A stretch of 64,000 nucleotides of DNA from Rhabditophanes sp. KR3021. Lineage: Eukaryota; Nematoda; Chromadorea; Rhabditida; Alloionematidae. The stretch lies in contig CAUJLY010000006.1 of the NCBI GenBank assembly GCA_963281155.1, positions 10,354,001-10,418,000 of the forward strand. The letters run 5' to 3'. Below, piece by piece: positions 25,800-28,700 of the stretch. Each line of letters starts with the position of its first letter. Within the stretch, counting starts at the first letter, position 1. A model generated the notes under the pieces. That model searched no databases and was not told the DNA's origin. It saw only the letters and a program-made list of their open reading frames with translations. Both the position numbers and the translations under genes were made by a program.

Positions 25800-28700
25800 T
25801 TAATTATTTGGAGAAACTACGCCCGCCTCTATAGCTAAAGATCTATACATTCCATTGGGGTTTTCTAATAATTTGTCAGGTGTATCGAATTCACTGATTA
25901 ATCCTTTGTCCATCACCAGAATTCGATCCATCTTTGAGACTGTATTTATACGATGTGCTATGGTTAAGACTGTGCAATTTTCAAATTGTTCTTTTATAGT
26001 CTTTTGAATTAGCTGGTCTGTTTCGACATCTACTGAAGCAGATGCTTCATCCAACACAAGAATGGCTGATTTTCGTAGCAATGCTCTAGCCAAGCACAGC
26101 AATTGCCTTTGCCCAACACTTAAATTACTTCCTGATTCCTGAATTTGATATTCCAGTTTATTTGGAAGAGAAGTAACATAAGCATCCAAGTAAGTTAATT
26201 GCAATGACTTCCAAATATCATCATCTGTATGCACTTCGAATGGATCCAAATTAAATCTTAATGTTCCAGAGAATAAAGCGGGATCTTGAGGAACTATAGT
26301 TATTCTTGATCTTAAGTCATTCAATCCAATTTTAGTAATATCAATCCCATCTATCTCAATTACTCCAGACGCTGGCTCAACTAATCTAAACAGAACTACT
26401 GACAAAGAACTTTTGCCCGCTCCTGTCCTGCCCACAATTCCGATTTTCTCTTTTGGTTTTGTCTCAAGTGAAATTCCATGTAAAGTAAGAGGCAACTCAT
26501 CCCGATATCTCAAGGTTAAGTCTTTAATTTTGATTAGGCCATGTGTAGGCCAGTTTGGAGGTAAATTAGTAATTTTAGGATCAGTTTCAGTTGAAGCTTC
26601 CATTTCATTATCTGAATATTCCTTGATACGTTCAACTGCAACAATATTTGTTTCAAGTTCACTAGTCATCCTCACAGCCCAATTTAGAGTTTGTGTGACA
26701 TTCAAAGCATACGACACTGACAAACCAACCAATCCAGCCGTTAAAGATGAATTTTGGCGGGAAAGTACGGCAAACAAGGCTGATGACAAAACTATTATAT
26801 TTCCCACTAATTCCAGCCTTACAGCTAACCATCTATTTGCCACAATTGATGGGTAGTAGGTGACCAAGTTGTAGTCGACTCTTTTATGAGACTCTTGTAA
26901 GAATGTATCCACACATCCATATGCTCTGATTGATGTTGCCCCTTGCACTGATTCTTGGAAATGAGAATATATTGGGGATCGTGAAGTTGATTCCAGTCTC
27001 TTTAATTGACGAGATGTATTGACATAAAATCTCTGAAAATAATAAGATTAATAAACAGTTATAAATGATTAGTAAGTATAATACAAAATTGATTAGTTTC
27101 AATAACAACACAGGTTAAATCAAACAAATGGTAAAATAAAGGTAAATAATTTAAACGGACCAAAATCATAAAATATATTATCGTGAGAGGAACAAGGACA
27201 AATCCGAAAATTGGTGTGGCATAACCGATCACAATCATAATTTCACACGAGGCAATAGCCGTTCTTATGAATGATGTCAAAGATCGGGGGATTGCTGTGT
27301 CTACGCCATCAATATCCTATAAGCAAAAGTTAGATTTATGATTAATAAAAGTTGTTATTTTATGTGTAAATACAATCAGTAACCAGTTATTGTTGTAAGA
27401 TTAAACATTTAACAAAAAGAAAAGTGTAAACAGGCAAATTAAAACAATTTCGCCTCAAGACATGAAGCAGAGAGTGACTGTTTTGGTGGTTTAAGCTACA
27501 AATCAAAAAATTCTAACCCGAATCAAGAGATATATAAACATGATTGGAATAACGGCACAGAGTATCATCGGAGTAGCATATACCGGTACCACAAATGTGG
27601 CTATTCCTTGTACTAATGTACTTGTTACGGTCATTATTGCTCCAGGCAGACGAGAATCCAACGCATCTATATCCTGTACAAGTATTGTTTATATTTAGTT
27701 TAAAGTTTTTAACTGATTAAGTTGCATTTCCGAATTAATTATTTTAGTAAAACCTACCTTTCCAAACCTATTCAAAACTCTCCCCATTGGGGTTGTATCA
27801 AAGAAGGACATAGGGGATCTAAGAATTCGTTTGAGCATACCTTCATGAAGAATCTCACTAGCAATAACCATGCCCAAAGTCATAATTATGGAAGCAACGC
27901 AAACAGTCGTAGCTTGCCCGATTCCAAGTAAAGTATATACTGCTAAATTATATTTTGTCTGGTAAGTATCGTTTCTGGCTTGAATTTCAACCGCTTCATC
28001 TGACCAAGAAGCAAGCCTAAGATTCGATAGAATACCGAGCATACTTGATCCCACGTAAATCAGAATAAAGATAACGGATTTGTAATAGCCAATAGCTTTG
28101 AAGTAAGTAATATACACACTCAGCTCGACTTCCCCAGTTTCCATATTTTCTTGCTGGATGATGGCTCCTTTTTTGATTCCATTTGGATGTAATTTTGCTT
28201 CCTCTATTTTCTTTTCTTTGTCAAGTAGAAGACTAGTTTCGCTCACCTTTCTATCTTTGTTTTCTTGATCTTGATCTAGGTTGGATTCAATACTCCTGGA
28301 TAATTCCTTTTCAATTCTTCGCTTCTTCTCCGGATCCAAATTTTCTAAATGCTCAAGAACTTCTCGAACTTCATCAGCGTCATCTCCAAAGCTTACACTT
28401 CTTCCTCTACTTTTGGCCTCCTCCATCAAAAATTCAGCCAACAGGACAGCCAACTCTCCATTATTTTTCAATAGCTCCTGATAATTTCCAGCTTCCGAAA
28501 TGTGCCCACTCTTCATAACATAAATATAATCGCAATATTTAAGTAGATGCAAACTATGCGTAACTAACACCCTAGTCTTTTCCTTCAACATTCCAGTTGA
28601 TGAAGACAAGACATTGTCAAAGATATGTTTTCCTACATGTGCATCAACAGCTGACAAAGCATCATCAATGATGTAGATGTCTTTGTTTGCAAAAAGAGCT

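What the first reader, a model, noticed from the sequence alone, without database searches (positions are those of the whole stretch)
27161..27673. Mutually exclusive, equal-length exon pair in an MRP transporter
Two 156-nt exons, both phase 0-0, encode alternative versions of the same TMD2 helix pair (DIDALDS… versus DIDGVDT…). Each fits between …NRFGK and RFYVNTSRQ, as in MRP1. The helix residues differ, so the two isoforms should differ in substrate range. I recall that C. elegans mrp-1 has alternative forms of one internal exon; if this is the same position, the arrangement is old and maintained.
Basis: partly seen in the sequence, partly recalled or inferred. Interest (0 to 1): 0.75.

Follow-up and report, generated by a model that had tools for sequence, protein, structure and literature searches.

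The report
Swappable exon pair in worm transporter
A free-living nematode's MRP pump gene carries two apparently interchangeable versions of one exon that encodes part of the pump's transport channel, and the pair looks like what is left of a four-version set older than the split of three large nematode groups.

Summary
In an intact MRP (ABCC) gene on the minus strand lie two 156-nt, phase 0-0 exons (4a, 27673-27518; 4b, 27316-27161) between the same flanking exons. The organism is Rhabditophanes sp. KR3021 (R. diutinus), a nematode; its database protein has only 4a. Each exon encodes the TM14-TM15 hairpin. They are not a local duplication: 4a falls in a nematode exon class "III" (100/98), 4b in a class "IV" (97/95), each with members from three suborders; sisterhood of 4a and 4b is rejected, modestly (p=0.030). 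Classes I and II exist in other worms, in the order I-II-III-IV (21 of 21 multi-class proteins); this gene has III and IV. In Haemonchus and C. briggsae, proteins identical outside this segment carry one class each. The classes put different charges on one face of TM14, the face of leukotriene-pocket residue M1092/M1093: substrate tuning is likely but unproven. Mutual exclusion here is inferred; no RNA-seq was available, and many database models of relatives hold several classes in series. Exon swaps in C. elegans mrp-1 are known: a new member of a known kind.

The parts
31172..31213 (-). exon 1 (start codon, [14 protein letters not shown])
   Evidence: agrees with UniProt model P0006
30287..31127 (-). 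exon 2 (N-terminal membrane part and start of the linker)
27758..30243 (-). exon 3, 2486 nt (linker, TMD1, NBD1, start of TMD2, ends ...NRFGK; donor AAG|GTAGGT)
27674..27757 (-). intron 3, 84 nt; too short to hold another 156-nt exon
27518..27673 (-). exon 4a, 156 nt, phase 0-0; nematode class III ([11 protein letters not shown]...), TM14-TM15 version A; the only version in the database protein
27317..27517 (-). intron 4, 201 nt (donor CGG|GTTAGA, acceptor GCTTATAG)
27161..27316 (-). exon 4b, 156 nt, phase 0-0; nematode class IV ([19 protein letters not shown]...), TM14-TM15 version B; absent from the database protein P0006
27033..27160 (-). intron 5, 128 nt (weak donor TTG|GTCCGT, acceptor TTTTCAG)
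25800..27032 (-). exon 5 (RFYVNTSRQ..., rest of TMD2, NBD2, stop)

Best explanation
Exons 4a and 4b are a pair of mutually exclusive exons of an intact long-type MRP (ABCC1-like) gene in Rhabditophanes diutinus KR3021. Exon 3 splices to either 4a or 4b, and that one to exon 5, giving two 1585-aa pumps that differ only in a 52-aa cassette forming the TM14-TM15 hairpin. They are orthologous to classes III and IV of a four-class exon array (I-II-III-IV) that existed before Spirurina, Tylenchina and Rhabditina separated; this lineage has lost I and II and kept introns around the pair in a gene that has only two other introns. Inferred function: each cassette sets a different charge pattern on the face of TM14 that holds the M1093 (leukotriene pocket) position, so the isoforms should differ in substrate preference. 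Shown: anatomy, homology, ancient origin, conservation of class-diagnostic residues. Inferred: the either-or splicing in this species, how it is enforced, and the substrate effect.
For: Equal length, equal phase, open frames, homology far above shuffles, intact flanking gene. The class III clade (100/98, 32 rows) holds 4a and the class IV clade (97/95, 19 rows) holds 4b, both with Toxocara, Tylenchina and Rhabditina members; both persist with long branches left out, 99/98 and 85/95. 4a+4b as sisters rejected, p-AU 0.030. Order conserved in 21 of 21 multi-class proteins. Three H. contortus proteins of one locus name (classes III, IV, II) and three C. briggsae proteins (III, IV, II; two from one annotation, one from another) do not differ outside the segment in 5 of 5 equal-length pairs compared. 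Diagnostic residues kept: R8 and Q22 in 4a; R11, R18, E25 in 4b. Position 15 aligns with residue 1093 of MRP1, given as human M1093 = bovine M1092, TM14, H-pocket, in PMC8267652 (passages and table rows read).
Against: No transcript data were available. In one search, 21 nematode protein models hold two to four classes in series, S. ratti and Parastrongyloides with the same III-IV pair among them; I read these as gene-finder artefacts because every exon is in frame, but double inclusion is not excluded, and both double inclusion and skipping stay open here. The donor of 4b is weak (5 of 9 matches) and P0006 lacks 4b. The trees rest on 52 columns, the sisterhood test is modest (p 0.030), and three fish rows fall on the nematode side, so the root of the nematode classes is unsure.
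Confidence: 0.87

Rival explanations
1. Both exons are included in series, giving a 1637-aa protein with a duplicated helix hairpin.
For: Double inclusion is in frame without internal stops. Twenty-one nematode protein models carry two or more classes in series, among them S. ratti P0035 and Parastrongyloides P0028 with the same III-IV pair.
Against: Single-class proteins that do not differ elsewhere exist in H. contortus and C. briggsae, and the H. contortus double model becomes exactly two of its single-class isoforms when one segment is left out. The R. diutinus model P0006 has one segment. The five MRP1 alignments shown run through this region with one copy and no insertion.
Confidence: 0.06
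2. Exon 4b is a decaying or unused exon and only isoform A is made.
For: Weakest 5' splice site of the gene: 5 of 9 matches, duplex energy -2.7 against -5.1 to -10.0 for the other four; not in the database model.
Against: 4b is the better conserved of the two: best 34 of 52 and mean 28.6 identical to class IV rows, against best 24 and mean 20.2 for 4a with class III rows; the three class-IV charged residues, the open frame and the exact length are kept.
Confidence: 0.05
3. A recent local tandem duplication in this lineage, independent of other nematodes.
For: The exons are adjacent and of equal length; MRP exon events are reported to have arisen independently in different phyla (PMC7434440, passages read, citing Yue et al. 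2017, which is not held).
Against: Each exon groups with its own nematode-wide class; sisterhood rejected at p 0.030; only 15 of 52 residues shared.
Confidence: 0.02

Closest known systems
C. elegans mrp-1 alternative internal exon (recalled as exon 13 with four forms, Yabe et al. 2005; paper not seen)
   Same: The C. elegans protein P0088 (gene name recalled as mrp-1) carries a 52-aa class I segment between the same flanks RFGK / RFYV. PMC9741552 (passages read) prints that C. elegans mrp-1 has a tandem duplicated exon event.
   Different: R. diutinus has only classes III and IV, in a gene with five exons per transcript and 43- and 44-nt introns elsewhere.
Drosophila MRP cluster 2 (eight mutually exclusive exons)
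   Same: One of several interchangeable exons is used (PMC4588896, passages read); [quoted passage not shown]
   Different: PMC9741552 calls the events unrelated. The four insect rows in the tree (Anopheles, Ladona, Timema, Trichogramma) fall outside the nematode classes. Fly MRP also has a two-exon cluster 1; I saw no second exon pair in this gene model but did not look up where fly cluster 1 lies.
Nematode coq-2 exons 6a/6e
   Same: Equal-length mutually exclusive exons that remodel the core of a nematode protein and switch its substrate (PMC7434440, passages read).
   Different: Another gene and enzyme; there exon removal showed the effect, here nothing was tested at the bench.
Docking-site/selector competing RNA structures (Dscam, 14-3-3zeta, MRP of insects)
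   Same: Would explain a one-and-only-one choice (PMC6071210, passages read).
   Different: No intron-intron pairing better than shuffles here: 45, 98 and 82 of 300 shuffles do as well for the three intron pairs.

Membership tests
Long-type MRP (ABCC1-like) transporter | Full-length similarity to MRP1 including its N-terminal membrane domain | tested here: met
   Query residues 31-1582 align to MRP1 chain 6uy0 residues 22-1531, 1353.7 bits
Long-type MRP (ABCC1-like) transporter | Usual LSGGQ signature in NBD1 | tested here: not met
   [16 protein letters not shown] here; of 22 other proteins in the list, 20 have LSGGQ at NBD1 and 2 gave no match to the pattern. NBD2 reads LSVGQ as in the others. 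I take it as a variant signature of a family member, not as exclusion.
Mutually exclusive exons | Adjacent internal exons of similar length, same frame, homologous, with splice sites | tested here: met
   156 and 156 nt, phase 0-0, GT-AG, 0 of 20,000 shuffles reach the score
Mutually exclusive exons | Transcripts contain exactly one of the two | not testable with these tools
   No reads held. Indirect: single-class proteins that do not differ elsewhere in H. contortus and C. briggsae; against: models with several classes in series
Nematode MRP exon array (classes I-IV, named here) | Each exon clusters with one class across nematodes | tested here: met
   4a in III 100/98, 4b in IV 97/95; 99/98 and 85/95 in the reduced tree
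Nematode MRP exon array (classes I-IV, named here) | Array order I<II<III<IV | tested here: met
   4a (III) precedes 4b (IV); 21 of 21 multi-class proteins agree
Nematode MRP exon array (classes I-IV, named here) | All four classes present | tested here: not met
   Class I and II profiles match only 4a and 4b in the window at E below 1; one query per class against the whole genome found only open-frame paralogs and, for class II, this locus
Docking-selector competing RNA structure | Selector sequences complementary to a shared docking site | tested here: inconclusive
   Intron pairings no better than dinucleotide shuffles; no close relative's introns were at hand for covariation
Steric-hindrance exclusion | Inter-exon intron too short to be spliced | tested here: not met
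   Intron 4 is 201 nt, while the gene model has introns of 43 and 44 nt
Exclusion by NMD or frameshift | Double inclusion or skipping breaks the frame | tested here: not met
   Neither product has an internal stop

The most novel reading that the evidence does not exclude
The four ancient cassettes are a charge code for the transport cavity. Along one face of TM14 class I sets acids at positions 15 and 22, class II a base at 14, class III no conserved charge from position 11 on but a glutamine at 22, class IV bases at 11 and 18 and an acid at 25. Nematodes thus pick the cavity charge of one pump by splicing, and lineages such as Rhabditophanes prune the code to the two cavities that they need (III neutral, IV charged), for instance for dauer formation or detoxification.
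Probability: 0.35. Interest if true: 0.62.

Novelty: new member of a known kind. Interest (0 to 1): 0.42.

Why it matters
If right, splice variants known from C. elegans become part of an ancient, ordered set of four exchangeable cavity cassettes with class-specific charges, with a two-cassette remainder in a culturable free-living relative of Strongyloides. That would make a direct test possible of how one helix pair sets substrate choice in an MRP pump. Database models that hold one cassette (R. diutinus) or several in series (S. ratti, H. contortus and others) may hide the choice.

Tried and rejected
Competing RNA pairings between introns 3, 4 and 5: energies no better than shuffles (45, 98, 82 of 300 as good); the 725-nt region is not more folded than 40 shuffles (-124.3 against a mean of -129.6). 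Splicing-factor motifs (recalled) lie near chance counts in introns 3-5. Steric hindrance and NMD as enforcers: not met. Classes I and II in this genome: not found as separate exons. A search with a 71-residue region of isoform B gave 5 hits from 9 candidates, probably for lack of shared words; one search carried the comparison. Nematode identification by the SL1 family or a recalled SL1 sequence gave nothing (no control rang). The first, Toxocara-based classification misplaced 4 rows by the tree (C. japonica, Halicephalobus P0080, C. auriculariae copy 1, Steinernema P0086 copy 1); I re-assigned them before the counts. Rows left out: 14 of the 63 nematode proteins were not put in the tree (near-copies and the 3 of unnamed source); segments identical to one already taken were skipped; the 9 outgroup proteins were picked by hand; 3 of 95 rows were dropped before (one bad Amphibalanus segment, near-copies of C. 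nigoni and Acipenser); the class I rows and three more (Mesorhabditis copy 2, Brugia, one Nucella) as well. The counts leave out Plectus and one 46-aa Steinernema segment. No structure prediction was run; full isoforms exceed the 1200-aa limit.

Full report
What is there. The window is bases 10354001-10418000 of contig C6 of a 44.8-Mb, 6-contig genome. A protein identical to the window's isoform A except at one residue of 1585 is filed under Rhabditophanes sp. KR3021, a nematode of Tylenchina, Strongyloidoidea; the published R. diutinus KR3021 assembly has 44.8 Mb in 6 scaffolds (PMC10676810, passages read). On the minus strand lies an intact long-type MRP gene: exons 31213-31172, 31127-30287, 30243-27758, then 4a (27673-27518) or 4b (27316-27161), then 27032-25800. 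The introns outside the pair have 44 and 43 nt; those around it 84, 201 and 128 nt. Full-length similarity is to MRP1 (1353.7 bits over residues 31-1582).

The pair. Both exons have 156 nt and phase 0-0; their products share 15 of 52 residues, with a score of 79 against a shuffled maximum of 34 in 20,000. They align to residues 1079-1130 of MRP1 chain 8vt4 (its numbering fits human MRP1, the call names no species), in the TM14-TM15 part (an MRP1 piece 1085-1190 is called TM14-TM15-ICL7 in PMC7203140, passages read). Position 6, residue 1084, is aspartate in all 78 nematode segments counted. Position 15 is residue 1093; human M1093 = bovine M1092 is listed as a TM14 residue of the leukotriene H-pocket (PMC8267652, passages and table rows read).

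Age. A search with the TMD2 region gave 5506 proteins, of which the best 120 were listed. I took 63 of these as nematode (60 by name, 3 of unnamed source by likeness) and scanned them for the segment; 49 went on to the tree, with isoform B. The tree of 92 segments (79 nematode, 13 outgroup, 52 columns) puts 4a in a clade of 32 rows (100/98) and 4b in a clade of 19 rows (97/95). Each clade has members from Toxocara, from Tylenchina (Strongyloides, Parastrongyloides, Panagrolaimus, Steinernema and others) and from Rhabditina (Caenorhabditis, Haemonchus and others) (suborders of genera other than Rhabditophanes are recalled). A tree without the class I rows and three other long or odd rows gives 99/98 and 85/95. 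Holding 4a and 4b together costs 29.2 log units, p-AU 0.030, a modest rejection. So the duplication is older than the split of these groups. Limits: few columns, many forks unresolved, class I made of long branches, and three fish rows fall on the nematode side (in one search they do not, support 55/48), so how the nematode classes root against other animals is open.

Array. Two more classes, I and II, occur. Toxocara P0050 holds all four in the order I-II-III-IV. In 21 of 21 proteins for which one search lists two or more classes the order is the same; one of these, C. auriculariae, depends on the re-assignment of its first copy by the tree. Among 18 proteins that I count as Tylenchina none has a segment in the class II clade; one segment, Steinernema P0086 copy 1, scored nearest to class II and sits with class I on a long-branch join that the program flags. 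These are gene models and could miss exons. For this window the DNA was checked: class I and II profiles match only 4a and 4b at E below 1; one query per class against the whole genome found only open-frame paralogs and, for class II, this locus. Intron 3 (84 nt) could not hold another such exon. So this species has a reduced array, III-IV.

Paralogs. Of nine ABCC paralog loci fetched from this genome, six (L003, L004, L005, L006, L008, L010) carry the segment in one open frame; in the other three (L009, L012, L013) the match breaks inside the segment, near its positions 13-16, not at its ends. Introns at both ends of the segment were seen only in the window gene. I saw no second copy of the segment at any of them (profile search of the fetched loci).

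Either-or splicing. Not observed here. Indirect evidence: H. contortus proteins P0049, P0067, P0078 (classes III, IV, II; one locus name) and C. briggsae P0038, P0073, P0079 (III, IV, II; the last two share a locus name, the first is from another annotation) do not differ outside the segment in 5 of 5 equal-length pairs compared; a sixth pair, C. nigoni, had unequal lengths. Against: the same H. contortus locus has a double model, P0044, and 21 models hold two to four classes in series. Since every exon is in frame, gene finders would chain them; but double inclusion here would also be in frame.

How the choice is made. NMD, frameshift and steric hindrance do not fit. All five introns are GT-AG. 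Both alternative donors match the recalled 9-base consensus less well (6 and 5 of 9) than the other three (7, 7, 8); by duplex energy only 4b (-2.7) is clearly weak, 4a (-6.4) being no weaker than exon 2 (-5.1). The acceptors of 4a and 4b (5 and 4 of 7) are like those of exons 2 and 3 (5 and 4 of 7); exon 5 has a full TTTTCAG. My reading: the donor of exon 3 and the strong acceptor of exon 5 compete for the sites of 4a and 4b, the 4a-4b splice is disfavoured, and a trans-acting factor picks the exon. This is inference and does not explain why the pair is not skipped. No competing RNA pairing stood out.

What the swap changes. Over 78 nematode segments (I 6, II 21, III 31, IV 20) the classes differ most at positions 18, 22, 14, 11 and 15. 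Class I: acid at 15 (6 of 6) and 22 (6 of 6). II: R at 14 (20 of 21). III: Q at 22 (25 of 31), R at 8 (27 of 31), no conserved charge from position 11 on. IV: R at 11 (20 of 20), R at 18 (18 of 20), E at 25 (16 of 20). 4a and 4b keep the marks of III and IV. The charged positions from 11 to 31 fall on one helix face (moment 0.82, permutation p 0.00055), the face of the 1093 position. A one-sided charge pattern shows a side away from lipid, not substrate contact by itself; contact is inferred from M1092/M1093. In an MRP1-MRP2 chimera study the TM14-TM15-ICL7 swap is named among constructs with poor or no expression (PMC7203140, passages read), so swaps here are not trivially tolerated; the nematode cassettes would have to be fitted to one frame.

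Known or new. PMC9741552 (passages read) prints that C. elegans mrp-1 and fly mrp have unrelated exon events that coincide in the structure; PMC7434440 (passages read) cites Yue et al. 2017 for independent origins of mrp-1 exon events in helminths, annelids and mollusks. Yue et al. is not held, so I cannot say whether it lists these classes. Further searches for nematode mrp-1 exon papers: searches gave none, two (the coq-2 paper and a mite paper), one search showed 15 of 235, of which I opened the two already named and PMC3923563 (passages read; it does not mention mrp). The window adds a reduced two-exon member; I did not meet the four-class order or the charge pattern in what I could read, which is limited. 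New member of a known kind, interest 0.42.

Noticed in passing
window MRP gene, NBD1, isoform residue 797 (within exon 30243-27758): The ABC signature of NBD1 reads [16 protein letters not shown]; of 22 other proteins listed, 20 have LSGGQ at NBD1 (2 gave no match). The frame is intact and the database protein agrees, so it looks like a real change in this lineage.
   Followed up: partly
window:27518-27520: The last residue of exon 4a is Arg (CGG); among 31 class III segments position 52 is mostly Leu (22) or Met (4). The database model agrees with Arg.
   Followed up: no
Database proteins P0035 (S. ratti), P0028 (Parastrongyloides), P0044 (Haemonchus), P0050 (Toxocara) and others: Gene models chain two to four alternative MRP segments in series, probably an annotation artefact that adds 52 aa per extra exon.
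   Followed up: partly
Own-genome paralogs L009, L012, L013: The match to the MRP segment breaks inside it, near positions 13-16, which suggests an intron at a place where the other six paralogs and the window gene have none.
   Followed up: no
window:34948-35649, minus strand: Open frames resembling a Rheb-type small GTPase (read by eye, not searched).
   Followed up: no
window:15149-15810, minus strand: A long proline-rich open frame of PPELPPPQ-type repeats, overlapped by another long repetitive open frame.
   Followed up: no
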